Both the position numbers and the translations under genes were made by a program. Below the pieces are notes generated by a model, which worked only from the letters and a program-made list of their open reading frames with translations, did not search any database and was not told the DNA's origin. Positions 19,597 to 37,952 of a stretch of DNA of 64,000 nt are shown piece after piece; the stretch's first letter is position 1, and each line of letters starts with the position of its first letter. The stretch is from Rhodospirillaceae bacterium. Lineage in GTDB: Bacteria; Pseudomonadota; Alphaproteobacteria; CACIAM-22H2. Location of the stretch: positions 1 through 64,000 of the forward strand of contig JALHMR010000003.1 in assembly GCA_022843945.1 (NCBI GenBank), read 5' to 3'.

Positions 19597-20898
19597 TCAG
19601 GTCCCGGTGGCGGTTCGCGGCTCCGGCATCGTGGCGCCGTCAAGCGTCGCCCCCTCGAGATTGACGTTCTCGAGATTTGCGCCGGCGAGCACGGCTTCCG
19701 TCAGGTTGGCGCGCGTCAGCAGGGCGTCGGTGAGGTTGGCATTCTTCAGCATCGTCGATTTGAGCGTCGCCTCGGTGAGATCGGCACCGGCGAGGTTGGC
19801 CGGCCACAGGCGCCCCGTCGGCTTGCCGTCCGGTCCCTTCATGTCGACCGCCGCGATGCTGGCGCTCGACAGGTTGGCCTTGGTCAGCTTGGCGGTCGAG
19901 AGATTGGCGCCGTCGAGCACCGCTCCGGTCAGATCCGCACCCGTGAGATCAGCGCCGAACAGATCCGACATCACCAGCGAGGTGCCGATCAGCCGCGCCC
20001 CGACGAGCTTGGCGTTGCGCAACGAGGCGCCGCTGAGGTTGAGATGCGAAAGATCGATCTGGGTCATTTCGGCGCCGGTGAGATTGGCGCGCGCACCCTG
20101 CTTGCCGTCGGTCTTGATCCAGGCGATATGCGCCCGGATCGTGGTCTGCACGACGTCCGAGAAGGAGTCGGCCGGCTTCGCCGTATTGACGCCCGCCGTA
20201 TTGGCCCGGGACAGGTCCAGGCCGTCAGTCTTGGCGCCGACAAGATTGGCTCCCTGGAGATTGGCGCCGTCGACCGCGGCACCGGAGAGGTCGGCGCCCT
20301 TGAGATTGGCCCCGACCAGGCTCGCGCCTTCGAGATTGACCCCCTTGAGGTCGGCATTGGTGAGGTTCGTCTTGTTGAGCTGCGCCTTGACGAGGTTGCA
20401 GCCGCTCATCCGGGCGCCGGAGCAATCCGCCTCATTCAGGGTGGCTGACGACAGGTCGGCTCCCGAGATGTTGGCTTTGGCGGGAGCGGCCTTCTCCTGG
20501 CCGGGCGCCGACGTATCGGAGGTCCGCGTGGTCGGCCCGGCCTTGGTGTCGCTGGTCAGCAGCGTACCGCCGCGCAGGTCGGCGTCGCGGAGGTTGGCCC
20601 CCTTCATCTTGGTGCCGCGCAGATAGGCGCCCCGCAGGTCGGCGCGCACGCATATTGCATTGCTCAGATCGGCACGATCGAGATTGGCGGCAAACAGGTC
20701 GGCCTCGGTGAGGTCGGCGCCGATCAGAACCGCACGCGCCAGATTGGCACCCGAGAGCTTGGCGCCCTTCAGGTTTGCCTTCGGCAAGGTAACGCCCTGC
20801 AGGTCCGCCATGGCCAGATTGGCACGGACCCCGCCGGGCTTTCTGCCCAACCAGCGCTCATGCAGCGCCAGCACCTTCATCAGTTCCTGCGGCGTCAT
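19597..20898 (-). CDS. pentapeptide-repeat protein
   Basis: 433 residues. After an N-terminal helix (TPQELMKVLALHERWLGRKPGG) nearly the whole chain is A-(D/N)-L-x-x pentapeptide repeats (ANLAMADLQGVTLPKANLKGAKL and similar). One interruption at about residues 105-130 (TSDTKAGPTTRTSD, Pro/Ala-rich) and a second at about 220-250 (no repeats, VVQTTIRAHIAWIKTDGK) split the solenoid into three blocks. The fold is a right-handed quadrilateral beta helix. Function unknown; some members mimic DNA. ATG 20898 is preferred to the in-frame TTG 6 bases earlier. It lies on the same strand upstream of MsrB. Confidence 0.85.
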   Translation of the reverse strand: MTPQELMKVLALHERWLGRKPGGVRANLAMADLQGVTLPKANLKGAKLSGANLARAVLIGADLTEADLFAANLDRADLSNAICVRADLRGAYLRGTKMKGANLRDADLRGGTLLTSDTKAGPTTRTSDTSAPGQEKAAPAKANISGADLSSATLNEADCSGARMSGCNLVKAQLNKTNLTNADLKGVNLEGASLVGANLKGADLSGAAVDGANLQGANLVGAKTDGLDLSRANTAGVNTAKPADSFSDVVQTTIRAHIAWIKTDGKQGARANLTGAEMTQIDLSHLNLSGASLRNAKLVGARLIGTSLVMSDLFGADLTGADLTGAVLDGANLSTAKLTKANLSSASIAAVDMKGPDGKPTGRLWPANLAGADLTEATLKSTMLKNANLTDALLTRANLTEAVLAGANLENVNLEGATLDGATMPEPRTATGT

Positions 20899-20987
20899 TG
20901 GCAACCAGTCTAACCTTGGTTTTCCTCAACGGCAAACGGGCTTACCGAACAGTTCGGAATCTCTTCACCAGCGTGCTTGAGGGAAAA

Positions 20988-22409
20988 TTAACGGCCGGCG
21001 GGGGCGGCCTCCCGCCCTTCGATCTCCGGATCGGCGAGCCCCAGCACCGGGAACAGGCTGTAGGTCGCCGCCAGCAGCCGAAATTCACCGAACCGGGCCG
21101 TCAGTTCACCGGTGACGAGCCCACTGGCCGCGCCGAAATAGTCCGCCTCGGCATCCAGCAGGTCGATAACCGTCTTGCGGCCCACCTCGAATTGCTCGCG
21201 GTAGGCCCCGCGCGCCAGCGACGACTGGCGAACCTGCTCCTGAAGGACCGGTATGCGATCGAGCGCCGTGGTCAGCGCGTTCCAGGAAAGCTGTGTCTCC
21301 TGCTCGAGATTGCGCCTGGTCTGCAGCAGCGTGTTGCGCGAGCGCGCGATGCGCTCCAGCGAGGCCCGGCGCCGGGCGACATCGGCGCCGCCCGAGTAAA
21401 GATTGTAGCGCATGACCAGCAAGGCCGAATTGTCGTTGTTCATGCCCATGACGCCGTCGACGTTCTTGTTGCGGTTGGCGCCCAATTCGAGATCGACCCG
21501 CGGCCAGAAACGCCCGTCCGCCTGCTGCAACTCACCGCTTGCCGCCTCGATATCCTTGTTCGCAGCGCGAATTCCGGGGCTGCGATCGACGGCCCGGTCG
21601 AAGGCCTCGGTCTCGTTGGCGGGCAGATCCGTCCGCATCGGGGCGATGGGCGCCAGGACACTGGGCCGGATGCCCACCACACGGAAAAAAGTTGCTTCGG
21701 CATCACGCAGGCGGCCGCGCGCCTGCGTAAGCGCGGCCTGAACGCCGGCGCGCCGGGCTTCGGCGCGGGGGAGCTCGGTCGTGTCACCGCGCCCGAGGCC
21801 CGCCGCCGGCCGCTCGGCACGCGGATCGTCGCTCAGCCCGGCCCGGGCCCGGGCCCGCCCCAGGACCTCGGCATGGCTGGCGACATTCTCCTCGGCCAGC
21901 CGCACGAGTTCACGGTTTCGCAGAACTTCCAGGTAGGCCTCGACGGCAGCCAGGGCGACCGTGTTGGCCGAAACCTTCACCCGCTCGCCGGCGGCGCCTT
22001 CGCGCGCCCGCGCACGGTCCACATCGCCGGCGGTGGAAAACCCATCGAACAGGTTCTGACGCAGCGTGATACCGGCCTCATTGCGCCAGAGCGTCGGGTC
22101 GGTGCCGGATTGCAGCCGGGTCGTCGGGGTACTGCTGTGCTCGATGCCCGTCGCGCCGCGCAGGTCCAGCAGCGGGTAATAACCGGAGCGGGCCTGGCGG
22201 GTCTCCTGCTCGGCTATCCGCACATCGTCACGCGAGATCAGAACGTCGGGATTCGTCCGCAGGGCGCCACGCACCGCCTCGTCGAGGGTGAGCGCGCTGG
22301 ACGGCTCGGACGTAACCGCAACCAAGGCTACTGCCGCGAGGAGCCAGGGCCCGATTTTTCGCCAATTGGCGACGGGCCGCGGCAGGCGCACGGAAAGGGC
22401 AGCTTTCAT
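20988..22409 (-). CDS. TolC-family outer-membrane channel of the type I secretion system
   Basis: 473 residues. Signal peptide to about residue 40 (ending SSALT), then two outer-membrane-efflux repeats. The first begins LTLDEAVRGALRTNPDVLISRDDVRIAEQ and the second near residue 255 with EAFDRAVDRSPGIRAANKDIEAA. YNLYSGGA and QFEVGRKTVIDLLDAEADYF are characteristic of the type I secretion (LapE/AggA-like) subgroup. It forms the outer-membrane exit for the exporter encoded divergently 242 bases away. A long coiled-coil content with many Ala/Arg/Glu fits the alpha barrel. Confidence 0.88.
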   Translation of the reverse strand: MKAALSVRLPRPVANWRKIGPWLLAAVALVAVTSEPSSALTLDEAVRGALRTNPDVLISRDDVRIAEQETRQARSGYYPLLDLRGATGIEHSSTPTTRLQSGTDPTLWRNEAGITLRQNLFDGFSTAGDVDRARAREGAAGERVKVSANTVALAAVEAYLEVLRNRELVRLAEENVASHAEVLGRARARAGLSDDPRAERPAAGLGRGDTTELPRAEARRAGVQAALTQARGRLRDAEATFFRVVGIRPSVLAPIAPMRTDLPANETEAFDRAVDRSPGIRAANKDIEAASGELQQADGRFWPRVDLELGANRNKNVDGVMGMNNDNSALLVMRYNLYSGGADVARRRASLERIARSRNTLLQTRRNLEQETQLSWNALTTALDRIPVLQEQVRQSSLARGAYREQFEVGRKTVIDLLDAEADYFGAASGLVTGELTARFGEFRLLAATYSLFPVLGLADPEIEGREAAPAGR

Positions 22410-22650
22410 CAACCTACTAGTTGCCTGTTAAGCCTTGCTCTTTCCTTAATCCGATTCGTGCTAATAGCCTAAAACTCCTTGATCGGACTGTTCTCTTCCA
22501 TACCGAAACATTCCACTTCCATCCCCGAGCGAAATTCTTGAATATTCTTGATAAATTGCAAGTGTCTAAGAGCGAGTCGCGAACGAGCGCATCGCCCCGC
22601 TTGCCCTCCCCACGCCTTTTGCGCCGGAATGCCAAGGACTCGACCGGATC
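22410..22650. promoter_or_regulatory. divergent intergenic region between tolC-like and ABC exporter genes
   Basis: 241 bases, A/T-rich compared with the flanks, especially 22436-22570 (stretches such as TTCTTGAATATTCTTGATAA). It should hold promoters for both the outer-membrane channel (-) and the exporter operon (+). I see no clear operator palindrome. Confidence 0.4.
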
Positions 22651-24867: not shown

Positions 24868-26199
24868 ATGACATCGCCATCGACCGACCGCTGGACCGAT
24901 CTCGACTTCGCGCCCGATAGCCGCGCCGCCCGTCGGCGCGGGCCGGCCGGCGGGGCACACCTGCTGCTCCTGCTGATCCTGCTGTTCATGGCGGCCTTCG
25001 TCTACTGGGCCTACCGCGCCGATATCGACGAGGTCACGCGCGGCGATGGCCGTGTCGTGCCGTCAGGTCAGGTGCAGATCATCCAGCATCCCGATGGCGG
25101 CGTCGTGCAGGAGATTCTGGTCCACGAAGGCGACATCGTCGATCGCAATGAATTGCTGATCCGCGTCGAGAGCACGATTACCGAGAGCGATTTCCGCGAG
25201 AAACGCGGTCGCTTCCTTTCCCAGATTGCCGCGATCGCCCGGCTTGAGGCGGAGCTGGAAGACAAGCCGATCCAGATGCCGCCGGAAGTCACCCGCGAAG
25301 CGCCGACGGTGGCCCAGGCCGAGCTCGACCTCCACCGCGCTCGCCAGAACGAGAACCGCACCGCCCTCGAGGTCCTGCGGAACCAGTCCGAGCAGCGCCG
25401 GCAGGAGCTTGCCGAGCTGCAAAGCAAGGAGAGGCAGCTCCGGCGCTCGGTCGACCTTGCCGCGGAAGAGCTCAAGATTACCGAACCGTTGCTGGCGCGC
25501 GGCGGCGTCAGTCGCGTCGAGGTCCTGCGCCTGCAGCGCGAGGTCAACGACCTGCGCGGCCAGCTCGAGGCCACTGGCCTTGCCATCCCGCGCGCGCAGT
25601 CGGCCATGGCCGAGGCGCAGCGGCGGATCGAGGAACGCGCGGCAACTATCCGCCGCGAGGCGCTGGGCGAGCTCAGCCGGCGCCGTGGCGAGGCCGCCTC
25701 GATCGGCGAGAGCGTCACCGCGGAAGGCGTGCGCGTGACACGCTCGGAGCTGCGCTCGCCGGTTCGTGGCGCCATCAAGCAGATCAAGATCAACACCGTA
25801 GGCGGCGTCATCCGGCCGGGGCAGGACCTGGTGGAGATCGTGCCGCTCGACGAGACCCTGCTGGTCGAGGCGAAGATCGCGCCGGCCGACGTCGCCTTCC
25901 TGCGGCCCGGGCAGAACGCGATGGTCAAGATCACGGCCTACGATTTCTCGATCTACGGCGGCCTGCCGGCCAAACTGGAGGAGATCAGCGCCGACGCCAT
26001 CCAGGACGAGAAGGGCAACAGCTTCTTCCGCATCCGCGTGCGTACGGACCGCAATTCTCTCGGCCCGGCGGACAAGCCGCTGCCGATCATCGCCGGCATG
26101 ACGGCCTCCGTCGACGTCCTGACCGGCCAGAAGACCGTGCTCGACTATCTCCTCAAGCCGATTTTCAAGGCCCGCGATCGCGCCCTTCGTGAGAGATAG
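24868..26199 (+). CDS. HlyD/LapC-type periplasmic adaptor (membrane fusion protein)
   Basis: 443 residues. A cytoplasmic N-terminal tail, one transmembrane segment (about residues 30-52, LLLLLILLFMAAFVYWAY), then a biotinyl-lipoyl half motif (GRVVPSGQVQIIQHPDGGVVQEILVHEGDIV). A long coiled coil (about 105-260) and the second lipoyl half plus beta barrel (LRSPVRGAIKQIKINTVGGVIRPGQDLVEIVPLDETLLVEAKI) complete it. It bridges the ABC exporter and the TolC-like channel. Third component of the type I apparatus and in one operon with the exporter. Confidence 0.9.
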   Translation: MTSPSTDRWTDLDFAPDSRAARRRGPAGGAHLLLLLILLFMAAFVYWAYRADIDEVTRGDGRVVPSGQVQIIQHPDGGVVQEILVHEGDIVDRNELLIRVESTITESDFREKRGRFLSQIAAIARLEAELEDKPIQMPPEVTREAPTVAQAELDLHRARQNENRTALEVLRNQSEQRRQELAELQSKERQLRRSVDLAAEELKITEPLLARGGVSRVEVLRLQREVNDLRGQLEATGLAIPRAQSAMAEAQRRIEERAATIRREALGELSRRRGEAASIGESVTAEGVRVTRSELRSPVRGAIKQIKINTVGGVIRPGQDLVEIVPLDETLLVEAKIAPADVAFLRPGQNAMVKITAYDFSIYGGLPAKLEEISADAIQDEKGNSFFRIRVRTDRNSLGPADKPLPIIAGMTASVDVLTGQKTVLDYLLKPIFKARDRALRER

Positions 26200-26282: not shown

Positions 26283-27461
26283 ATGGCGGAACTCGGTTTT
26301 CGACAAACAGGATTTCTGGCGCCGCTCGTCTCCGACGCGGCGGAGGCCGCGTTTCTCCCGACCCTGCCTGGCGCGGATGTCGATCTCTCGGCGTTGGTGG
26401 ATACCAATGCCTCGATCCGGATCGAGAACGGCAATCTCATCCTCGCGCCGGCCTTCGGACCCGTGGTCGTTCTCGAGAATTTCGTCGCCGCCACGGCGGA
26501 CCGGCCGATCGCCGTCCTGCTGCCGGGTGGCACCGTCATACCATCGGACCAGCTGATCGACCTGCTGGCCACCCCCGTGGATTTTTCGGTGGCCGATATC
26601 ATCGCCATGCGGCTTGCCGCCACCGTCCCACCCGCCGATCCGACGTCGGAAACCACCGGCTCACCGCCCGAGCCCGACCCTAGTCCGGCCCGTCTCTTCC
26701 GCGATGAGGAGAGCCAGCTTCGGATCGCCGACATCGCCCCGCCTGAAACGGTTCGCGGCCGTTCGGTCGAATTCATCGATCAGGAGTCGGTTGCCGGACC
26801 GCGCCCCGAGATCGCCCTGGCGCCTCCCGCACCGGACGACAGCTCGGCCCGCACACCCGCGCCACTCCCGATCGATGAGCGCGCGGCAACCACGCCGCCG
26901 CCGCTCGACGGCAATACGCCCGCGCCCAGCACCGTGTCAGGCAGCTCCGGCGACGACGCGCTGACCTTGTCGGCCCCGGCGGTCGGCGTCACCGTCGATC
27001 TCGGTAACGGTAGCGACACGCTGACCCTGGCTGACGGAGTCAACGATGTCACGGTCACCCATACCGAAACCATCCATGGCGGCGCCGGCGACGATACCGT
27101 GCGCCTCGCCGATGTGCCTTCGCTCATCGATCTGAGCGATGGCATCGACACGCTCGATTTCAGCGCTCTCGCTGCGACGGATCTGAGCGCTGCCGGTGCG
27201 CAGTATCAAAACATAGAGGCTGTCGACCTGAGCGGCGGCGGCGGGACGACATTGAGCCTCAACGCGCAGGACGTCCTCGATCTGTCACCCGATACCGATA
27301 CGCTGCTCGTGTACGGGGACAACGATGTCGTCGCTATGGGTTCCGGCTGGACCGTGACGCCTGGCACCACGCCCTCGGGTGAGGTCGCGGATGTCTACAC
27401 GCAAGCCCTGGGCGGACGGATGGCCACGATCATCGTCGACGGGGACGTCTCGGTCGCCTGA
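26283..27461 (+). CDS. small type I-secreted repeat protein, miniature paralogue of the giant adhesin
   Basis: 392 residues, no classical signal peptide. The N-terminal region (about 32-116, with SIRIENGNLILAPAFGPVVVLENFV) aligns with residues 56-139 of the giant protein. A Pro/Ser/Thr-rich linker (about 117-220) follows, then only one to two RTX-like repeats (SGSSGDDALTL, GGAGDDTVRLA). The C-terminal 100 residues (SLNAQDVLDLSPDTDTLLVYGD... ending VDGDVSVA) match the C-terminus of the giant, the type I secretion signal region of VCA0849-like adhesins. It sits 83 bases after the adaptor gene. Possibly a second adhesin, a secretion-priming partner or a relic. An ATG at 26270 lies in another frame. 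Confidence 0.8.
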   Translation: MAELGFRQTGFLAPLVSDAAEAAFLPTLPGADVDLSALVDTNASIRIENGNLILAPAFGPVVVLENFVAATADRPIAVLLPGGTVIPSDQLIDLLATPVDFSVADIIAMRLAATVPPADPTSETTGSPPEPDPSPARLFRDEESQLRIADIAPPETVRGRSVEFIDQESVAGPRPEIALAPPAPDDSSARTPAPLPIDERAATTPPPLDGNTPAPSTVSGSSGDDALTLSAPAVGVTVDLGNGSDTLTLADGVNDVTVTHTETIHGGAGDDTVRLADVPSLIDLSDGIDTLDFSALAATDLSAAGAQYQNIEAVDLSGGGGTTLSLNAQDVLDLSPDTDTLLVYGDNDVVAMGSGWTVTPGTTPSGEVADVYTQALGGRMATIIVDGDVSVA

Positions 27462-27466
27462 CGGTT

Positions 27467-27769
27467 TCAGACAGGCTCCGCGCCGAACAGCAGATTGGTG
27501 TCAGACGAGCAGTAAAGCGTCACGCCACTGTCGAGCTGATAGTAACGCAGCCCCGCCACGTTCTCGCCGGCCGCCGTGACATGCGCATCCGCCAGCCCGG
27601 TCGCGGCGACAGCCTGTTCGGTGGTCACCGCCAACGTCTCCACTCCAGCCATCCGGAGCACGATCTCACCCCCCGAATCGGGCAGCAGATCGCTGAGCTG
27701 GAGCACGACCCTCCCCTCGTCCGGAGCGGGCGCCGGCGATTCAGCGGATGAGGATGGATCGGTGGACAT
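27467..27769 (-). CDS. hypothetical protein, 100 residues, in the adhesin locus
   Basis: I do not recognise this family. The N-terminal 18 residues are Ser/Pro/Ala-rich. The rest (about 20-97) is acidic with alternating hydrophobic residues, including LQLSDLLPDSGGEIVLRMAGVE and a Tyr-rich YYQLDSGVTLYCSSDTNLLF, suggesting a small beta domain. No signal peptide or membrane segment. The start ATG at 27769 lacks a good ribosome site and abuts the palindrome at 27769-27784, which may cover its promoter. It ends 6 bases from the end of the small secreted protein, on the opposite strand. A role in adhesin secretion is only suggested by position. Confidence 0.5.
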   Translation of the reverse strand: MSTDPSSSAESPAPAPDEGRVVLQLSDLLPDSGGEIVLRMAGVETLAVTTEQAVAATGLADAHVTAAGENVAGLRYYQLDSGVTLYCSSDTNLLFGAEPV

Positions 27770-27988: not shown

Positions 27989-30900
27989 ATGGCCGAAGAC
28001 GGCATGGTTGGACAGGAGCAGACCACGGGTCCTGCAGCGGACTCGCTCGGCCCAACTGCGCCTGCTATCACGCCGGCCGGTCCTGCTCCTGCTGCCCCGA
28101 CTGCCAACGCACCTGGACAGGCCACCGTCACCATCCAGGTGACCCCTGGCCAGAATGTTGATCTATCCTCGGTACTCACCTCGAACGCCGAAGTCCGGGT
28201 CCAGGGCCGTGACCTGCTGATCACGCGGCCCGACGCGGCCCCCGTCCTCGTACAGAACTTCGTCGTTGCCGCAAACGCCGCGCTGCCGCAGGCCGTGACG
28301 CTGGCCAACGGCGTGGTCATCGCGGCGCGTGAACTGCTCACCGTTACGCAGCAGTTTGGCAGCGTCTCGGCCTCCGACGTTCTCGGCAACCGCGTCGCCC
28401 AGGTCGCGCCGGCCGCCGGCCCCACACCGGGAGCCACGGCACCCCAGAGCTCAACGTCGGGATCCACGGCTTCGCACAGCGCCGCCAACCCCAACCCGCC
28501 AAGCGGCGGTGTCGCTGACGGTAACAACCAGGGCGGCAATAGCAGTGTCCGTCCCGACGCCCCCATCGGCGTGCGCCCGGAGGCGCCCGGCAACAGTGGC
28601 GGCTCAGCAGCTCCCGGATCTCCGGGCGCCGGCACCGGCCGAGGTGCTGCGCCTCTGGATGAAGGCGGAAGCTGGGGCGGTGCGCAGCAGGCCGAAGCCC
28701 CGCGCGACATGAACCCGCCTCGGGCTCCCACGAGCCTGGCCGTCGCACCGAGCGTGGTGGTCGAGAACCAGTTGGGCGGCATCATCGGCATCATCAGTGC
28801 CAGCGACCCGAATCCGGGCGAGACCTTCACCTACGAGATCGTCGGCGGTCCGCACGCTGCGCAGTTCCAGATCGTCGACAACCAGCTGATGATCGGCACC
28901 GACGGGCTCAACTTCGCTCCGGGCGAAGAACGGGCCCTGCTCATCAAGGTCACCGATTCGAGCGGCCTGTCGTCGAGCTTCCCCGTCAAGGTGCAGCTCA
29001 CCAGCGTCGCCACCGACAGCGGCGACCAGGTCACCATGTCGTTCGCGGTGGCGAACGGCACCATCGATCTCGGCGGCGGAACCGATACGCTGACCCTCGC
29101 CAACGGCACGAACCGGGTGACGCTTCAGAACACCGAAACGGTGGTCGGCGGTGCGGGCACGGATAGCGTCACCATGGGGACCGCCGGCGACATCAACGTC
29201 AGCGGGGTCGAGATCCTCTTCGGCTCCGGCGGCACCGATGTCGTAACCATGGCGGCCGGCGGCACGCTGGCGATCTCCTCGGTCGAAAGCGTGGTCGGCT
29301 CGGCCGGCGGCGACGTGCTGATCCTCGGCTCCAACGAGAGCGGGGTGGTGGTCAACCTCGGCGGCGGCGCCGATCGCGTGGTCATGAGCGCCAGCGGTGG
29401 CGAGATCGTTGTCTCGAATGTCGAGACGGTTGTCGGCGGTACGGGCACAGACGCCGTCACGCTCGGCGCCGCGTCCACGATCACTCTCGGAGACGTCGAG
29501 ACCGTTACTGGCAGCGCCGACAACGATGTCGTGACGATTTCGAGCGCCGGCAACCTGACCGCCGATCTCGGCGGCGGCACCGACGTTCTCAACCTCGCCG
29601 GTGGAATGAGTACACTGGCCGCGACGGGCATCGAAACCATCACTGGCACGGTCGGCGACGAGAATCTGACGCTGACGCGCGCGGCGAGCGGTACGGTGAA
29701 CCTCGGAGCCGGCTCGGACACGCTCACGCTCGGCGACTTCGCCAACAGCCTGACGGTCGGCGGCATCGAAAGCCTGATCGGTGGCGCCGGCGCCGACACG
29801 GTCACGCTCGCCTCGGCTTCGGTCATGACAGTCGAAGGCGTGGAGACGCTGACCGGCAGCGCCAGTTCGGATGTGGTCACGCTGGGGGACAGTGTCGCCG
29901 GCATGACCGTGGCCCTGGGCGGTGGTTCAGCCGACCGGCTCAACCTCGCGGCTGGCGCCAATACCTTGGCCGTGTCCGGCGTCGAGAGCATCACCGCCTC
30001 AGGCGCGGACGACGCCCTGACCCTCACGGCGACGATGGGCAGCGGCACCATCGACATGGGTGCGGGCAGCGACACGCTGGCCCTGGCCGGCGGGGCGAAT
30101 ACGCTGCGCATCACCGGCGCGGAGACGGTGCTTGGCTCGACCGGCGCCGACACGCTGACTCTGAGCGGAGCGTTCATCGGCGGCACGATCGATCTCGGCG
30201 ACGGCGCCGACACCGTGATCCTGGCGAGCGGCAGCAATTCGACGATGGCCATGGCCGGCGTCGAGACGGTCACCGGTACGACCGGAAGCGAGACCGTCAC
30301 CCTCACCAGCAATGTCTCCGGGCTCAGCCTCAATCTCAGCTCCGGGACCGATACTCTCAATCTCGCCGCCGGCGCCAATACGCTGAGCGCGACGGGCGTC
30401 GAGACGATCGTCGGAACGGCCAGCGACGACACCTTGACGCTCAACAGCGCCGCAACCGGGACGATCGATCTGGGCGCGGGCGCCGACACGCTCAACCTCG
30501 CCAACGCTACCAACACGCTGACCGCCCTCGGTGCTGAGACCATCGTGGGCGGCACGGGCACCGACGCCATCACCCTGGGTGCTGGCGCCAATACCCTGGC
30601 GGCGACCGATGTCGAAACCCTGACCGGCTCGGCGAGCGCCGATGCGCTGAACCTCACTGGCGGCATGGCCGGCACCACGATCAATCTCGGCGCCGGGAGC
30701 GATACGCTCACGCTCGCCGATGCCGCAAACACGTTATTTGCCACGGGTATCGAGACGCTGATCGGCGGTACGGCCGCCGACACGGTGACGCTGACGGGCG
30801 GCGTGACAGCGTCGATCGATCTGGGCGCTGACGCCGATGCCGTAAACCTCGCCAGCAGCAGCACCTCGTCGCTGACCCTTTCCGGTGTCGAGACCCTCAC

Positions 30901-33900
30901 CGGTGCGTCCGGCAACGAGACGCTCACCCTGCAGAACAACCAGGCCGGGCTGAGCATCAACCTTGCCGGCGGCACGGACATTCTCAACCTGGCGGCCGGC
31001 ACCAACACGCTTGGCGTTTCCGGCGTCGAGAGCATCGTCGGCACAAGCGGCGACGATGCGCTGACGTTGACCGGCGGCTTGTCCGGCAGCACGGTCAATC
31101 TGGGCGGCGGCAGCGACACGCTGACCCTCGCCGATGCAGCCAATACGCTCTTCGCCAGCGGCATCGAAACACTGATCGGCGGCACGGGCACCGATACGGT
31201 CACGCTGACGAGCGCCGTAACCGACGCCTCGATCGACCTGGGCGCTGGCGCCGATGCCGTGACACTCGCCAGCGGCACGTCCTCGCTATCGCTCGCCGGC
31301 GTCGAGACGCTCACCGGCACGTCCGGTGGCGAAACCCTTACGCTGCAGAACAACGCCTCCGGCCTGACCGTTAATCTCAGCACCGGCATCGACACGCTTA
31401 ACCTCGCGGCCGGCACGAACACGCTCACCGCGACCGGGATCGAGACGATCGCCGGCACCGACAGCGCCGACACGCTGATCCTGGGTGGCGCCGTGACAGG
31501 CACCATCGACCTCGGCGACGGAACCGATGCGCTGTCTCTGGCCAACGCCACCAACACCGTAACCGCCGTTGGCGTCGAGACGATCACCGGCGGAACCGGC
31601 GCCGACAGCGTCACCATCATCGGCTCTGGCAGCGCAGTCTCCGTGGATCTCGGTACCGGTACCGATGTCCTGACCGTGAGCGGCGCGATCGGCGCTCTTA
31701 CGACCACCGGTGTCGAAACGATTGTCGGCGCGAGCTCCGACGATTCGCTGGTCCTGACTGCGAATCCGGGAAGCGGCACGATCAATCTCGGCGCGGGCAC
31801 CGACACGCTGACCTTGGCTGACGGCGGCAACACGCTGACGATGGTCGGTGTAGAGACCGTGATTGGCGGCACGGAAGCTGATGCGGTCACCCTGGCGGCC
31901 GGCGCCAATAGCCTGGCGGCGACCGGAATCGAAACCATCACCGGTACGACAAGCGCCGATGCGCTGATGTTGACCGCCGCGCTCTCCGGCGCGACCGTGA
32001 ACCTCGCCGGCGGCACCGACACGCTGACCCTGGCCGACGCCACCAATGTGGTGTCGGTGACCGGCGTCGAGACGGTGGTCGGCGGCGCGGGCAGCGACAC
32101 GGTCACCCTGACCGCCGCCGCCAGCGGCGTTTCGATCGGCTTGGGCGATGGCAGCGATGATGTACTGAATATCGCCGCCGGCGCCTCGTCTCTCCAGGTC
32201 TCGGGGGTCGAGACCCTGGCCGGCACCGCCGGCAATGAAACTCTCACCCTGACGGGTGCCGTCAGCGACATCTCGATCGATCTCGGCGCCGGCACCGACG
32301 CGCTCACGATCGCGGCGGGATCGTCTTCGATGGCCCTTGCCGGCGTGGAGACGCTAACCGGAACCACGGGCGCCGAAGCGGTCACGCTGCAGAACAACGT
32401 TTCCGGGCTCTCGGTCAACCTCAGTACCGGGATCGATACCCTCAACCTCGCGGCGGGCACCAACTCCCTCTCGGCCAGCGGTGTCGAAACCATTCTCGGC
32501 TCGGACTCGATCGATGCGCTCACGCTGACGACAGCCGCCACGGGCACGATTGACCTCGGCGGCGGCATCGACGCCCTTGCCCTCGCCAACGCGACCAACA
32601 CGATCACGGTTGCCAACACGGAAACGATTTCCGGCGGCACCGGAGCAGACACGGTCACCCTGGCTGACAATGTCAGCGGCGCAACCGCCGCTCTCGGCGC
32701 GGGAACGGATATCCTCAACCTGGCGGCCGGCGCCAATACGCTGACCGCTTCCGGCGTGGAGACCCTTGCCGGCACGGCCAGTGACGACACGCTGACTCTG
32801 GCAACGGGCGTCACGGGCGCGACGGTCAATCTGGCGGGCGGCAGCGATACCCTGACGCTGGCGGATGCGGAGAACACCCTGACATTGACCGGTGTCGAGA
32901 CCGTCCTCGGCGGTAGCGGTGGCGACTCGCTGACGCTCTCGGGTGCCGTTACCAACATGAGCGTCAACCTCGGCGACGGCGCCGATGCCCTGACTCTCGC
33001 CGCCGGCATCAGCAGCCTCGCCCTCACCGGCGTCGAGACTCTGGCCGGCACCACCGGCAGCGAGACCGTCACTCTCCAGAACAATGCCGCCGGGCTAACC
33101 ATCAGCCTGGGCAGCGGCACCGATGTGGTGAACCTGGCCGCCGGTGCCAACGAACTGATCGCCAGCGGCGTGGAAACCCTGGTCGCTTCCAGCGGCGACG
33201 ACACGCTGACCCTCGGCGCTACCTTCACGGGCGGCACCGTGGACATGGGCGCCGGTACTGACACGCTGGCCCTGGCCAGCGGCGCCAGCAGCCTCGCTGC
33301 GGTGGGTGTCGAGACAATCGTCGGCACGGCAAACGCGGATAGCCTGACCCTGACGGGTGCCGCATCGGGGACGATCGATCTCGGCAGTGGCAGCGATGCG
33401 CTCATCCTTGCCAATGCAACGAATACCATCACCGTTTCAGGCATCGAGACCCTCACCAGCGGGACCGGTGTCGACACCGTGACGCTGGCCGGCAATGTCA
33501 GCGGCGCCACCATGAATCTCGGCACCGGAACCGACACTCTCAACCTTGCGTCAGGCGCCAACACCCTGGCCGCGACCGGCATCGAGACGATCGCCGGCAC
33601 CGCGAGCGCCGATGCCCTGACGCTGACTGCCGCAGTGACTGGCACGATCGACCTGGGCGGCGGGGGCGATGCCCTGACCCTGGCCAACGCCACCAATACG
33701 GTCACCGTTTCCGCTGTCGAGACCATCACCGGCGGCACGGGCGCTGACAACGTCACCCTGATCGGAGCCGGCGACGTCTCGGTCGATCTCGGCGCCGGCA
33801 CGGACGTTCTCACCGTCGGCGGTGCCGTTAACCTCTTGAGCGTCGCAGGCGTCGAAACGATCAGTGGCGCCGCCACCGACGACGCCCTGACCCTCGGCAC

Positions 33901-36900
33901 CGGCATGTCCGGCGCCACCGTCAACATGGGGGCCGGTAGCGACACTCTCACGCTCGCCGATGCCACGAACACACTGACGGTGGTCGGCGTCGAGACGCTC
34001 ATCGGCGGCTCGGGCGGCGATACAGTGACGGTGAGCGGCACGGTCAGCGGCCTCACCGCCAATCTCGGTGACGGCACCGATGCGCTCAACCTGGCGGCCG
34101 GCGCCAATACGCTCGCGGCAACCGGCGTCGAAACGATCACCGGCACGACCAGTACCGACGCTCTCACCCTGAACGCCGGACTGACCGGGGCCACGGTGAA
34201 CCTGTCGTCGGGCACCGACACCTTGACGCTTGCCGATGCCACGAACGTGGTCTCGGTAACCGGCGTCGAGTCGGTTGTGGGTGGCAGCGGCGCGGACACG
34301 ATCACCCTGACCGCGGCCGCAACCGGCGTCTCCATCAATCTCGGCGCCGGCGGCGACGATGTCGTCAACATCGCGGCCGGCACCTCGTCACTCGGCCTCA
34401 CCGGCGTCGAATCGGTGGGCGGCACCGGTGGCGCCAACGTCCTGACGCTGACCAATCTGGCATCGGATATCAGCGTCGACCTGGGCGCGGGCGCCGACGC
34501 CCTGACGCTGGCGGCTGGCGCAAACAGCCTGGCGGCCAGCGGCATCGAAACCATCACCGGCTCCGCCAGCGGAGACGCGCTGACCCTGACCGCCGGCCAT
34601 ACCGGCACGGTCAACCTCGCCGGCGGAACGGATACGCTAACACTGGCGGATGCCACCAACGTTGTCTCCGTCACGGGCATCGAGACGGTCGTCGGCGGTG
34701 CTGGCAGCGATACGGTTACGCTGACGGCGGCAGCCACCGGGATATCGGTTGATCTCGGCGCGGGCACCGACGCGGTGGCCCTCGCCGCCGGGACCAATAC
34801 GCTCAGCGTCACCGGGGTCGAAACGATCACGGGCTCGGCCAGCACCGATGCCTTGACGCTTTCTTCCGCCTACTCCGGGACTGTCAATCTTGCGGGCGGG
34901 ACCGACACGCTGCATCTCGCGGACGGTGTCGACAACACGCTGTCCGTCATGGGTGTCGAGACCCTCACCGGCGGCGACGCAACGGATGTCGTCACGCTGG
35001 CGGCCGGCGGCACGATCGCCGTCACCGCCGTCGAGACCGTGTTCGGCAGCATCGGCAACGACATCGTCACGGTCACCGATTTCGAGGGCCAGAGCGGCAA
35101 CAGCAGCGACGATGTCCGCGTCGAGCTCGGCGCCGGCGACGACGCCTTGACCGTTGTCGGCCGCATCCGTGATCAGACGATCGACATGGGATCGGGCACC
35201 GACACGCTCACGCTCGGCCATACCGACAACGATTTCGCGATTACGGGGATCGAAAGCATCGTCGGAACCGCCGGTAATGACGACCTGCAACTGACCAACA
35301 ATGCCAGCGGGCTCATCGTCAATCTGGGTGCCGGCAGCGCGGATACGCTCGAGCTGAGCGCGGGGGCCAACACCGTCGGGCTGGTCGGTGTCGAGAACGT
35401 GCGCGGCTCGGACGACGATGATGCGCTCACGCTGACCGGTTCGGTGACGAGCGGCACCATCGACCTGCGCGATGGGAACGACACGCTCATCCTCGGAGCC
35501 GGCCCGAATACCCTCTCCGTCGATCACCTGGAGACTCTCACGGGTGGTTCCGGGACGGACGTCGTGACCATGGCCGGTGCCGGCACGATGACCGTGACCG
35601 GCGGGGTTGAAACGCTGACCGGCAGCGGCAGCGCCGACACCATCACGCTTGCCGGCAACGTCAGCAGCATGACGGTCAACCTCGCTGGCGGCACCAACGA
35701 CGAGCTTTATCTCGCGGCCGGCGCCAACACGCTCACCGTCACCGCCGTCGAGACCGTGACCGGCACGGCGAGCGCGGACGACCTGACCCTGAGCGGCGCA
35801 ATCACGGGCAGCACCCTCGATCTCGGCGACGGGGCCGATACCCTGACCCTGGCCAATGCCACCAACTCCCTGCTCGTGCGCAATGTCGAGACGATCACCG
35901 GCGGCACCGGGGCCGACACCATAACGCTCGACGCCAATGTCAGCGGCATCAGTGTCAATCTCGGTGCGGGCACGGACATTCTCAACCTCGCCGCCGGCGC
36001 CAACACGCTCGAGATCGGCGGCATCGAAACCCTGGCCGGCTCGAGCAGCGCCGACACCGTCACTCTGACCGGCGCGGTGACGGGCGGCACTGTCGATCTC
36101 GCCGGCGGCAGCGATCACCTGAGCCTCTCCGATGCCGGCAACACGCTGAATGTCAGAAACGTCGAAACCGTCGCTGGTGGCAGCGGCATCGATACCGTAA
36201 CGATGGCGGCGGCAGGCGCGATCGTCGTCAGCGGCCTCGAGACGCTGCTCGGCAGCACCGGCGCCGACACGGTGTCGCTGGCGGATGCCGCCTCCGGCAT
36301 CTCCATCAGCCTCGCCGGTGGTACGGACCGCCTCACGCTGGGCGACTACACCAACGTCGTCAGCATTTCCGGTGTCGAGTCTCTGACCGGCGGTAGCGGC
36401 GCGGACGCTGTCACGATGACCGCCGCGGGCTCGGTGACGATGTCGGGCATCGAGACCCTGGCCGGCAGTTCGGGCAACGACACTGTGACCCTGTCGGGAA
36501 CCGTGTCCGGCATCTCGGTCGATCTCGGGGCCGGCAGCGCCGATCGCCTGATCCTCGCCGGTGGCCTCAACGACATCACCGTCGGAGGCATCGAGACGAT
36601 CGCCGGGGCGAGCAGCGCCGATACGCTGACGCTGAGTGGCAGCGTGTCGGGCAGCACCATCAGCATGGGCAACGGCAACGACACGCTGACCTTCAGCGAT
36701 GCCGCAAGCAATGCCCTGATCGATCTGGGCGCCAACAACGACCTGATCACCTTCAACGGCGCCGCTACCGGCGTGTCGATCATCGGCGGCTCGGGCACGG
36801 ATCGCGTGGTACTCGGCGACTTCGATAACCAGATCACTGCCACGACGGTCGAAACCATTACCGGCGGCTCGGGTGTCGACGATGTGGCGCTGACGGCGAC

Positions 36901-37267
36901 CGGCGCGACGGTCAACCTGGGCGCCGGCGACGCGGATATCCTCGACCTCAGCGCCATTGGCGGAAACGTCAGCCTCGGCGCCGCCGGCACTCAGTACACG
37001 GGCATCGAGAAGCTCGACCTGCGCGGCGGCGTGACCAACACGATCACGCTCGATGCCCAGGACGTGCTCGATCTTTCGGACTCGACCGACACGCTGCTGG
37101 TGCGCGGCGATTCCGGCGATACGCTGTCGATCAGCGTCGGCGGCTGGACCAATGGCGGCACCCAGGACAATCCCTCGGGCGAGCTGGGCACCTTCAACGT
37201 CTGGACGCGCTCGGTCGGCGCCAATACCGCCACCCTGCTGGTCGAAAACACCGTCAGCGTGGCGTGA
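27989..37267 (+). CDS. giant type I-secreted repeat adhesin (BapA/LapA-like), 3,092 residues
   Basis: No Sec signal, as expected for type I export. Order of parts: Pro/Ala-rich start (1-45); Bap-prefix-like domain (about 46-135, VRVQGRDLLITRPDAAPVLVQNFVV); Gly/Pro/Ser-rich linker (about 136-245) with a PAAG tetrapeptide at 141-144; one cadherin-like domain (about 247-340, VVENQLGGIIGIISASDPNPGETFTYEI). About 60 degenerate repeats of roughly 45 residues follow (about 350-2970), then a C-terminal secretion region (last about 120 residues). Each repeat has three beta-like thirds: G-x-E-T-(L/I)-x-G, (D/S)-x-L-T-L and L-G-x-G-x-D-T-L-x-L. Some contain a GGxGxDx(L/V)-type nonapeptide. Very rich in Gly, Thr, Asp, Leu; no Cys seen in the repeats I read. 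Probably a surface or biofilm adhesin. Confidence 0.88.
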   Translation: MAEDGMVGQEQTTGPAADSLGPTAPAITPAGPAPAAPTANAPGQATVTIQVTPGQNVDLSSVLTSNAEVRVQGRDLLITRPDAAPVLVQNFVVAANAALPQAVTLANGVVIAARELLTVTQQFGSVSASDVLGNRVAQVAPAAGPTPGATAPQSSTSGSTASHSAANPNPPSGGVADGNNQGGNSSVRPDAPIGVRPEAPGNSGGSAAPGSPGAGTGRGAAPLDEGGSWGGAQQAEAPRDMNPPRAPTSLAVAPSVVVENQLGGIIGIISASDPNPGETFTYEIVGGPHAAQFQIVDNQLMIGTDGLNFAPGEERALLIKVTDSSGLSSSFPVKVQLTSVATDSGDQVTMSFAVANGTIDLGGGTDTLTLANGTNRVTLQNTETVVGGAGTDSVTMGTAGDINVSGVEILFGSGGTDVVTMAAGGTLAISSVESVVGSAGGDVLILGSNESGVVVNLGGGADRVVMSASGGEIVVSNVETVVGGTGTDAVTLGAASTITLGDVETVTGSADNDVVTISSAGNLTADLGGGTDVLNLAGGMSTLAATGIETITGTVGDENLTLTRAASGTVNLGAGSDTLTLGDFANSLTVGGIESLIGGAGADTVTLASASVMTVEGVETLTGSASSDVVTLGDSVAGMTVALGGGSADRLNLAAGANTLAVSGVESITASGADDALTLTATMGSGTIDMGAGSDTLALAGGANTLRITGAETVLGSTGADTLTLSGAFIGGTIDLGDGADTVILASGSNSTMAMAGVETVTGTTGSETVTLTSNVSGLSLNLSSGTDTLNLAAGANTLSATGVETIVGTASDDTLTLNSAATGTIDLGAGADTLNLANATNTLTALGAETIVGGTGTDAITLGAGANTLAATDVETLTGSASADALNLTGGMAGTTINLGAGSDTLTLADAANTLFATGIETLIGGTAADTVTLTGGVTASIDLGADADAVNLASSSTSSLTLSGVETLTGASGNETLTLQNNQAGLSINLAGGTDILNLAAGTNTLGVSGVESIVGTSGDDALTLTGGLSGSTVNLGGGSDTLTLADAANTLFASGIETLIGGTGTDTVTLTSAVTDASIDLGAGADAVTLASGTSSLSLAGVETLTGTSGGETLTLQNNASGLTVNLSTGIDTLNLAAGTNTLTATGIETIAGTDSADTLILGGAVTGTIDLGDGTDALSLANATNTVTAVGVETITGGTGADSVTIIGSGSAVSVDLGTGTDVLTVSGAIGALTTTGVETIVGASSDDSLVLTANPGSGTINLGAGTDTLTLADGGNTLTMVGVETVIGGTEADAVTLAAGANSLAATGIETITGTTSADALMLTAALSGATVNLAGGTDTLTLADATNVVSVTGVETVVGGAGSDTVTLTAAASGVSIGLGDGSDDVLNIAAGASSLQVSGVETLAGTAGNETLTLTGAVSDISIDLGAGTDALTIAAGSSSMALAGVETLTGTTGAEAVTLQNNVSGLSVNLSTGIDTLNLAAGTNSLSASGVETILGSDSIDALTLTTAATGTIDLGGGIDALALANATNTITVANTETISGGTGADTVTLADNVSGATAALGAGTDILNLAAGANTLTASGVETLAGTASDDTLTLATGVTGATVNLAGGSDTLTLADAENTLTLTGVETVLGGSGGDSLTLSGAVTNMSVNLGDGADALTLAAGISSLALTGVETLAGTTGSETVTLQNNAAGLTISLGSGTDVVNLAAGANELIASGVETLVASSGDDTLTLGATFTGGTVDMGAGTDTLALASGASSLAAVGVETIVGTANADSLTLTGAASGTIDLGSGSDALILANATNTITVSGIETLTSGTGVDTVTLAGNVSGATMNLGTGTDTLNLASGANTLAATGIETIAGTASADALTLTAAVTGTIDLGGGGDALTLANATNTVTVSAVETITGGTGADNVTLIGAGDVSVDLGAGTDVLTVGGAVNLLSVAGVETISGAATDDALTLGTGMSGATVNMGAGSDTLTLADATNTLTVVGVETLIGGSGGDTVTVSGTVSGLTANLGDGTDALNLAAGANTLAATGVETITGTTSTDALTLNAGLTGATVNLSSGTDTLTLADATNVVSVTGVESVVGGSGADTITLTAAATGVSINLGAGGDDVVNIAAGTSSLGLTGVESVGGTGGANVLTLTNLASDISVDLGAGADALTLAAGANSLAASGIETITGSASGDALTLTAGHTGTVNLAGGTDTLTLADATNVVSVTGIETVVGGAGSDTVTLTAAATGISVDLGAGTDAVALAAGTNTLSVTGVETITGSASTDALTLSSAYSGTVNLAGGTDTLHLADGVDNTLSVMGVETLTGGDATDVVTLAAGGTIAVTAVETVFGSIGNDIVTVTDFEGQSGNSSDDVRVELGAGDDALTVVGRIRDQTIDMGSGTDTLTLGHTDNDFAITGIESIVGTAGNDDLQLTNNASGLIVNLGAGSADTLELSAGANTVGLVGVENVRGSDDDDALTLTGSVTSGTIDLRDGNDTLILGAGPNTLSVDHLETLTGGSGTDVVTMAGAGTMTVTGGVETLTGSGSADTITLAGNVSSMTVNLAGGTNDELYLAAGANTLTVTAVETVTGTASADDLTLSGAITGSTLDLGDGADTLTLANATNSLLVRNVETITGGTGADTITLDANVSGISVNLGAGTDILNLAAGANTLEIGGIETLAGSSSADTVTLTGAVTGGTVDLAGGSDHLSLSDAGNTLNVRNVETVAGGSGIDTVTMAAAGAIVVSGLETLLGSTGADTVSLADAASGISISLAGGTDRLTLGDYTNVVSISGVESLTGGSGADAVTMTAAGSVTMSGIETLAGSSGNDTVTLSGTVSGISVDLGAGSADRLILAGGLNDITVGGIETIAGASSADTLTLSGSVSGSTISMGNGNDTLTFSDAASNALIDLGANNDLITFNGAATGVSIIGGSGTDRVVLGDFDNQITATTVETITGGSGVDDVALTATGATVNLGAGDADILDLSAIGGNVSLGAAGTQYTGIEKLDLRGGVTNTITLDAQDVLDLSDSTDTLLVRGDSGDTLSISVGGWTNGGTQDNPSGELGTFNVWTRSVGANTATLLVENTVSVA
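29030..36900 (+). repeat. array of about 60 degenerate coding repeats inside the giant adhesin gene
   Basis: Counting the marker (G/A/N)-(V/I)-E-(T/S) by eye gives about 60 units with a period of about 43-47 codons (130-140 bases). Units differ in sequence and codon choice, so the DNA repeats are far from exact. Some multi-unit blocks are alike at the protein level, for example around 31920-32330 and 34130-34560. Confidence 0.85.
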
Positions 37268-37898
37268 CACCGGTCGACGCCCTTGGGGCACCGCCGTCGC
37301 CGAGCATGATCAGGATCAGGAAATCGTCAGGCCTGCTGCGCGCCACCGGCATCAGCCGCGCCGGCGACGACACCACGCGCCCGGGCGCCACGTAGAGCAG
37401 GTGCGCCCGGCTGGCGTTGATCTGTCCCGCTCCGAAGGCGGCGACCAGCGCCTCGTAGCCCATGTCCATTCTCAGCTTGAAGAAATGGTCGAGCGCCTTG
37501 CCCGGGAGATTGGCATAGGCCGAGCCGTACCAGCCGCCGAACCCCGTATTGACGCGCAGGATGCGCCGGTCGCGCGCCATGATCAGGCACGGTGCGGGAC
37601 AGATCTCGACCAGCGTATCGACATCCGTGCTGCCCAAGGACAGGCCGGCCCGCCGGGCGGCCTCCTCGGCTTCCTGGTGCCGGCGGCTGGCCTCGGCCAG
37701 ACAGAACAGGCGAAGCTGCGACGCGAGATTGGCGCCGCGCGGCCCCTGCGCGGCGAGGTCGGCCACCAGGCGCCCGAGCTTCACCCCGCGCTCGCGAGCG
37801 GCCTCGGCGAGAGCCGACCAGAAAGCCGGCTCGAGCTTGAGCGAGTAGCGGCGACCGTCCGCCTGAAGGATCCGCTGCTTCGCCGCACTTGTTTCCAT
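37254..37898 (-). CDS. ribbon-helix-helix plus PAS-like domain regulator
   Basis: 214 residues. The N-terminal segment (about 10-50, RRYSLKLEPAFWSALAEAARERGVKLGRLVADLA) matches the RHH_4 ribbon-helix-helix domain, a DNA-binding fold. A helical linker rich in Ala/Arg/Glu (55-85) follows. The C-terminal region (about 95-200, ICPAPCLIMARDRRILRVNTGFGGWYG ... FLILIML) has the layout of a PAS sensor domain. The combination suggests a ligand- or redox-responsive regulator. Its 3-prime end overlaps that of the giant adhesin by 14 bases on the opposite strand. ATG 37898 is used; an in-frame GTG at 37910 is possible. Confidence 0.65.
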   Translation of the reverse strand: METSAAKQRILQADGRRYSLKLEPAFWSALAEAARERGVKLGRLVADLAAQGPRGANLASQLRLFCLAEASRRHQEAEEAARRAGLSLGSTDVDTLVEICPAPCLIMARDRRILRVNTGFGGWYGSAYANLPGKALDHFFKLRMDMGYEALVAAFGAGQINASRAHLLYVAPGRVVSSPARLMPVARSRPDDFLILIMLGDGGAPRASTGVTPR

Positions 37899-37952
37899 GG
37901 TAGGCCACACCCCGATGTAAAGGTGAGGCCAAGCTGAGCCTGCATCAAGGGT

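What the first reader, a model, noticed from the sequence alone, without database searches (positions are those of the whole stretch)
27989..37267. A giant type I-secreted protein with about 60 unusual repeats
The array is not a classical RTX block of tandem nonapeptides, nor the Ig/VCBS repeats common in LapA-like adhesins. Each unit of about 45 residues carries the invariant marker (V/I)-E-(T/S) plus L-G-x-G-x-D-T-L, with a single nonapeptide-like GGxGxDx(L/V) in some units. This may be a distinct solenoid repeat type. The repeated D-x-L/T-x-L rhythm suggests a beta helix with Asp ladders that could bind calcium.
Basis: partly seen in the sequence, partly recalled or inferred. Interest (0 to 1): 0.6.

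Follow-up and report, generated by a model that had tools for sequence, protein, structure and literature searches.

The report
Giant secreted RTX-type calcium rod protein
This gene encodes a very large secreted protein built of about 57 copies of a 46-residue unit that is predicted to fold, probably with calcium, into one long stiff rod; the unit is an unrecorded variant of the known RTX (repeats-in-toxin) calcium repeats, not a new kind of protein.

Summary
The ORF is real: 27989-37267, 3092 aa, pI 4.05, no Cys, with about 57 units of 46 aa. The array is old and selected: at identical residues, third codon positions agree only as often as codon usage predicts.

Annotation misses it (whole protein: no Pfam hit), but it is RTX-type. 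PF00353 matches one stretch above its cut-off and 56 of 85 homologous six-unit segments, against 0 of 8 shuffles. A unit profile picks Marinomonas ice-binding protein region IV (3p4g) from the PDB (E 5e-8). In relatives the units run straight into classical nonapeptides.

AlphaFold2 of six units gives a continuous beta-solenoid (pLDDT 97, pTM 0.90); the best matches include 3p4g, RsaA and RTX blocks. There are five strands per 46 residues. Four near-invariant polar positions (E2, D11, D31, N40) and internal lags of 9, 17, 20 and 26 fit a degenerate nonapeptide grid, so VET is the Glu version of an RTX turn. Inference: 2.5 coils per unit, a rod of about 68 nm, folding in external calcium.

ABC and HlyD genes and a divergent TolC gene adjoin it, with a 392-aa sister sharing both end modules. 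LapA-like anchoring is possible, unproven. New variant of a known kind.

The parts
20988..22412 (-). TolC-family outer membrane channel of a type I secretion system, divergent
   Evidence: TIGR01844 268.5 bits (cut-off 225), PF02321
22651..24864 (+). Type I secretion ABC transporter, LssB type
   Evidence: TIGR03375 947 bits (cut-off 693), residues 37-730
24868..26199 (+). HlyD-family periplasmic adaptor
   Evidence: TIGR01843 389 bits (cut-off 209)
26283..27461 (+). 392-aa sister protein with the same N-module and C-module as the giant and only about one unit of repeat between them
   Evidence: N-module 35% identical, E 4e-15; last 131-138 aa 51% identical; alignments
27989..37267 (+). Giant ORF, 3092 aa, about 293 kDa, pI 4.05, no Cys
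28121..28408 (+). N-terminal module (residues about 45-140), shared with the sister protein and with N-termini of other large alphaproteobacterial proteins
28409..28420 (+). PAAG (residues 141-144), the only [T/A/P]AA[G/V/S/T] in the N-terminal 400 residues; possible LapG-type cleavage site
   Evidence: chance about 11% by shuffling; motif from PMC13090378
28421..28708 (+). P/S/G-rich linker
   Evidence: sequence, composition
28709..29023 (+). Weak cadherin-like domain (residues 241-345)
   Evidence: PF00028 21.0 bits, E 5e-4, below its cut-off of 28.8
29066..36868 (+). Array of about 57 units of 46 aa (some truncated to 25-26), RTX-type beta-roll
36866..37264 (+). C-terminal module: end of the solenoid plus a capping domain, presumably with the type I secretion signal
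   Evidence: AF2 pLDDT 87.5; best aligned chains mostly RTX blocks with C-caps; module found in 18 of 289 genomes of the class, in several after classical RTX repeats

Best explanation
A type I-secreted giant whose central 2600 residues are a non-canonical RTX beta-roll. Each 46-aa unit is a fixed string of five strand-and-turn half-coils; in four of them the turn keeps a polar residue at the calcium-ligand position of the RTX nonapeptide (along the chain E2, D11, none, D31, N40), and the fifth has lost it. The acidic chain (189 Asp + 78 Glu against 0 Lys + 15 Arg in the array) stays unfolded in the low-calcium cytosol, leaves through the neighbouring ABC-HlyD-TolC exporter C-terminus first, and folds outside on binding calcium into one continuous rod of about 68 nm (2.5 coils of about 18.4 aa per unit). 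The N-module, followed by an AAG motif, may hold the N-terminus in the TolC channel as in LapA, making this a surface rod. Shown: ORF, period, constraint, RTX relationship, exporter genes, predicted fold. Inferred: calcium binding, 2.5-coil geometry, export direction, anchoring and adhesive or surface role.
For: PF00353 over cut-off in a window stretch, in 56 of 85 homologous segments, 0 of 8 shuffles. Unit profile to PDB: 3p4g E 5.4e-8. AF2 of six units pLDDT 97.1, pTM 0.90, five strands per unit at starts 3, 12, 20, 32, 40. Foldseek rank 1 3p4g (E 3e-3, prob 0.99) and VIA Z 16.7 over 257 aa; RsaA Z 15.4, an RTX block Z 14.6. Internal lags 26, 9, 17, 37, 20 (z 9.5 to 5.0) and none at 23. Per-unit conservation E2 100%, D11 97%, N40 92%, D31 83-100% in relatives. 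Relatives' arrays continue into classical nonapeptides. T1SS genes. Synonymous saturation with conserved residues. N-module at the head of other large proteins, several followed by AAG; LapG-type protease in the genome, 67 bits.
Against: The whole 3092-aa protein has no Pfam hit and the modelled six-unit segment itself misses PF00353 at E 0.01. The 3p4g sequence E-value sums several weak stretches (best single one i-E 0.01). No Foldseek match reaches E 0.001, and a calcium-free autotransporter helix (4q1q TibA) has Z 16.1 at lower rmsd, so the fold alone does not prove calcium binding. The alignment consists of repeats, which can raise AF2 confidence. No LapD N-terminal domain found, and the sister protein lacks the AAG motif.
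Confidence: 0.78

Rival explanations
1. A shed or crystalline surface-layer or matrix protein (as RsaA of Caulobacter) rather than an anchored adhesin: the rod packs laterally or with the 392-aa sister, and no N-terminal retention occurs.
For: RsaA, an S-layer RTX protein, is among the best structural matches (Z 15.4, 13.8). No recognisable adhesive domain. LapD N-terminal domain not found.
Against: N-module with a following AAG motif and a LapG-type protease in the genome. A weak cadherin-like domain is more typical of fibrillar adhesins. RsaA is far shorter (about 1025 aa).
Confidence: 0.3
2. An ice-binding adhesin like Marinomonas MpIBP, using the turn side of the roll as an ice-binding face.
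For: Best sequence and structure match is the MpIBP ice-binding region.
Against: The T and N of the xGTGND motif are absent: GTGND occurs 0 times, GxGND once; turn positions 8, 10, 28 and 30 are variable.
Confidence: 0.04
3. A calcium-independent beta-helix of autotransporter or pectate-lyase type that only resembles RTX by composition.
For: TibA fragment aligns at Z 16.1, rmsd 3.1 over 259 aa; other autotransporters follow.
Against: PF00353 matches real but not shuffled segments; D11 and D31 are conserved across many genera; arrays merge with classical RTX repeats; T1SS rather than type V genes adjoin.
Confidence: 0.08
4. A recently amplified, functionally neutral low-complexity repeat.
For: Strongly biased composition (T, G, A, L).
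Against: Units average 45% aa identity, and third-position identity at identical residues is 0.50, as expected from codon usage (0.42-0.55), even in the 83%-identical pair (0.45): old duplications held by selection. The same unit recurs in Alpha- and Betaproteobacteria.
Confidence: 0.01

Closest known systems
Marinomonas primoryensis ice-binding protein region IV (PDB 3p4g)
   Same: Non-canonical RTX beta-roll with a fixed non-nonapeptide period and acidic turns; the first part of the unit (GxxGxD-TLTL-xxxxxG-xxVxL) follows its XGTGND-XUXU-GGXUXG-XUX pattern; part of a giant T1SS protein.
   Different: 19 aa per repeat, one coil, calcium on one side, 12-13 coils, ice-binding T/N motif. Here 46 aa and five strands per unit, with extra N and E turns, about 57 units, no GTGND.
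Canonical RTX nonapeptide repeat (Pfam PF00353)
   Same: GxGxDxU turns and strands; internal lag of 9; matched in 56 of 85 segments.
   Different: Only part of the turns keep G-G-x-G-x-D; period is 46 instead of 9 or 18; Asp is replaced by Glu, Asn or nothing at fixed positions.
Caulobacter S-layer protein RsaA (6p5t, 5n8p)
   Same: T1SS-exported alphaproteobacterial protein with an RTX beta-solenoid; Z 15.4.
   Different: Forms a lattice and is much shorter; a regular 46-aa array is not known from it (own knowledge, not tested here).
SMc04171 family calcium-binding repeat protein (NF046115)
   Same: Weak match to the array, 51 bits.
   Different: Far below its cut-off of 625 bits; family model of 574 positions.
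LapA-type retained adhesins
   Same: Giant, acidic, T1SS with LssB-type ABC, N-module followed by [T/A/P]AAG; LapG-type protease in genome.
   Different: Extender here is a continuous beta-roll, not Ig-like or VCBS domains; no LapD N-terminal domain found; N-module not matched to a LapA retention model.

Membership tests
RTX proteins (PF00353 calcium-binding repeat) | Sequence match of the repeat to the nonapeptide model | tested here: met
   25.6 bits against cut-off 23 for window 30353-31000; 23.2 with neighbours; 56 of 85 homologous segments; 0 of 8 shuffles
RTX proteins (PF00353 calcium-binding repeat) | Tandem nonapeptides of period 9 or 18 (canonical form) | tested here: not met
   Main period 46; lag 9 is present but secondary (z 8.0), lag 18 z 1.5. 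Hence a variant like the non-canonical region IV of MpIBP, not the canonical form
RTX proteins (PF00353 calcium-binding repeat) | Parallel beta-roll type solenoid fold | tested here: met
   AF2 pLDDT 97.1, all-beta solenoid; 3p4g Z 16.7, another RTX block Z 14.6. Predicted, not solved
RTX proteins (PF00353 calcium-binding repeat) | Calcium binding and calcium-dependent folding | not testable with these tools
   Inferred from conserved D11 and D31 only
RTX proteins (PF00353 calcium-binding repeat) | Type I secretion with C-terminal signal | tested here: inconclusive
   Exporter genes adjoin and a C-module shared with other RTX proteins is present; export itself untested
MpIBP region IV ice-binding roll | 19-aa xGTGND repeat with T and N for ice binding | tested here: not met
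   GTGND 0 times; period 46
LapA-type retained adhesin | N-terminal retention module followed by [T/A/P]AAG | tested here: inconclusive
   PAAG at 141-144, 11% by chance; module recurs at other N-termini, several followed by AAG, but no retention-module model was matched
LapA-type retained adhesin | LapG-type protease (PF06035) in the genome | tested here: met
   C1:251614-251925, 67.2 bits, cut-off 27
LapA-type retained adhesin | LapD c-di-GMP receptor | tested here: inconclusive
   No PF16448 match, but diverged receptors exist (Desulfovibrio, PMC13090378) and the assembly is 97% complete
Adhesin with Ig/VCBS extender domains | Array of separate Ig-like domains | tested here: not met
   One continuous solenoid predicted

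The most novel reading that the evidence does not exclude
The 46-residue unit makes 2.5 coils, so consecutive units present the same turns on opposite faces and the true structural repeat is 92 residues and five coils, with two calcium ladders running N-D-D-E-gap along the two edges of the rod. That would be an RTX architecture with half-integer units, not described in the papers I could search, used as a long modular extender in many Alpha- and Betaproteobacteria.
Probability: 0.5. Interest if true: 0.5.

Novelty: new variant of a known kind. Interest (0 to 1): 0.38.

Why it matters
A recurrent 46-residue RTX variant builds proteins of 2000-4800 residues in Telmatospirillum-like bacteria, Ferrovibrio, Hyphomicrobium, Asticcacaulis, Rhodoferax and others, yet Pfam and NCBIfam carry no model for it and annotation of the whole window protein returns almost nothing. 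A model would name many unannotated giants. The unit also shows how RTX turns can be lost at fixed positions while a continuous solenoid is kept, which is testable with a short recombinant piece.

Tried and rejected
Single-protein Pfam and NCBIfam scans of the whole ORF gave nothing useful, probably because of bias correction; scanning pieces and homologous segments did. phmmer of the full protein against PDB: nothing. A first guess that the unit is two equal 23-aa coils was dropped: identity at lag 23 is 0.105, under baseline, and DSSP gives five strands. N-module, C-module and cadherin-like stretch gave no credible NCBIfam match even at E 10. The long minus-strand ORFs inside the array (29125-34845, 34637-37291) are GC-rich antisense shadows. 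Literature searches found no paper on this 46-residue unit in the held library. Viral structure library: best hit is again a haemolysin-type calcium-binding repeat, of an uncultured phage (E 6e-3). VIA-align also ties several autotransporter and tailspike helices, so I do not use Z alone.

Full report
OBSERVATION. The ORF at 27989-37267 is open for 3092 codons. VET-type markers occur 57-59 times, mostly 46 residues apart, with eight truncated units of 25-26 residues. Identity at lag 46 is 0.27 against a shuffled baseline of 0.116, z about 25. The composition is very acidic (pI 4.05; array 189 Asp, 78 Glu, no Lys, 15 Arg) and free of Cys.

THE ARRAY IS OLD AND CONSTRAINED. Among 31 units of exactly 46 residues, mean aa identity is 45% and the best pair is 83% identical. 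Where two units carry the same residue, the third codon base agrees in 0.50 of cases, which is what codon usage alone gives (0.42-0.55 per residue), and in the 83% pair in only 0.45. So the units are not a recent DNA amplification; their shared residues are held by selection.

FAMILY. The whole protein has no Pfam hit and only a weak match to NF046115. Pieces do better: 30353-31000 matches PF00353, the RTX calcium-binding nonapeptide, at 25.6 bits over a cut-off of 23 (23.2 bits in a genome-wide scan). A 28-unit profile (A1) hits, among PDB sequences, Marinomonas primoryensis ice-binding protein region IV, 3p4g, at E 5.4e-8; this is a sum of several weak stretches, the best single one at 0.01. 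The same profile finds many giant ORFs in four genomes of another genus of the family, and a consensus query over named genomes finds the unit in Telmatospirillum-named bins, Hyphomicrobium, Asticcacaulis, Ferrovibrio, Belnapia, Siculibacillus, Chthonobacter and, in Betaproteobacteria, Rhodoferax, Curvibacter and Chitinilyticum. ORFs of up to 4790 residues carry it. It is patchy: 6 of 398 genomes sampled across the phylum, and no hit in the one other genome of the window's genus. In several relatives the 46-aa array runs into GGxGNDxL nonapeptides and a serralysin-like end. Of 85 homologous six-unit segments, 56 match PF00353, best E 2e-12; 0 of 8 shuffles do.

FOLD. AF2 of residues 875-1150 with those 85 segments (A3) gives pLDDT 97.1 and pTM 0.90, an uninterrupted beta-solenoid with five strands per unit at starts 3, 12, 20, 32, 40. 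Foldseek ranks 3p4g first (E 3e-3, prob 0.99), followed by RTX blocks and RsaA. VIA-align: 3p4g Z 16.7 (rmsd 5.8) over 257 residues, RsaA 15.4, another RTX block 14.6, but also TibA 16.1 at rmsd 3.1, so the solenoid class is firm while calcium binding rests on sequence.

ANATOMY OF A UNIT. In relatives E2 is 100%, D11 97%, N40 92% and D31 83% to 100% conserved, depending on how columns are pooled. Counting along the chain, D31 to N40 is 9, N40 to E48 is 8, E48 to D57 is 9, and D11 to D31 is 20. Each sits in a G/N-x-(N, E, D)-T-(L/V) context. Internal lags 26, 9, 17, 37 and 20 are significant (z 9.5 to 5.0) and lag 23 is not. I read this as a degenerate RTX nonapeptide grid in which VET is the Glu version and ANTL the Asn version of GxDxL, and one of five half-coils has lost its polar residue. 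If strands alternate between two sheets as in RTX rolls, a unit is 2.5 coils of 18.4 residues, faces alternate from unit to unit, and each edge carries N-D-D-E-gap. The rod would be about 141 coils, 68 nm at 0.48 nm per coil.

SURROUNDINGS. Upstream lie an LssB-type ABC transporter and a HlyD adaptor in tandem, and a TolC gene on the other strand. Between HlyD and the giant lies a 392-aa protein with the same N-module (35% identity, E 4e-15) and C-module (51%) and hardly any array. The C-module occurs in 18 of 289 genomes of the class, often after classical RTX repeats in FG-GAP-like proteins; its model (pLDDT 87.5) is the end of a roll with a cap, most like RTX C-terminal blocks (Z about 8, modest). 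The N-module recurs at the N-termini of other large proteins, several followed by an AAG. The giant has PAAG at 141-144; [T/A/P]AAG is the LapG cleavage motif (PMC13090378). A LapG-type protease is in the genome; no LapD N-terminal domain was found. Other neighbours are unrelated metabolic, repair and pilus genes.

MECHANISM. By analogy with RTX proteins (PMC6891781) the chain is exported unfolded and folds outside on calcium; the result is a stiff extender. Anchoring through the N-module is plausible, about even odds. Ice binding is unlikely because the GTGND motif is absent.

VERDICT. Real, ancient, under selection, and RTX-type; the 46-residue form is a variant without its own database model. 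Interest moderate.

Noticed in passing
26283-27461 (+): Short sister of the giant with the same two end modules and almost no array, beside the exporter genes; no AAG motif. Could be a cap, partner or competitor for the same exporter.
   Followed up: partly
27467-27769 (-): Small minus-strand ORF of about 100 aa between sister and giant (starts MSTDPSSSAESP, contains MAGVETLAVTT).
   Followed up: no
37254-37910 (-): Ribbon-helix-helix (PF13467) protein with a further domain, overlapping the last 14 bases of the giant gene in convergent orientation.
   Followed up: no
19597-20904 (-): Pentapeptide-repeat protein next to TolC: another repeat-solenoid protein beside the exporter.
   Followed up: no
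G000 C17 (5036-aa open frame), C11, C36: The same genome has other large ORFs full of classical PF00353 repeats.
   Followed up: no
L095, L107, L071: In Ferrovibrio-type proteins the C-module lies inside the protein, between classical RTX repeats and a 46-aa array, so it is not only a terminal signal.
   Followed up: partly
29066-36868: Lag 138 is slightly stronger than lag 92 (0.214 vs 0.208), and units with ETLTLQNN recur, hinting at old multi-unit duplications.
   Followed up: no
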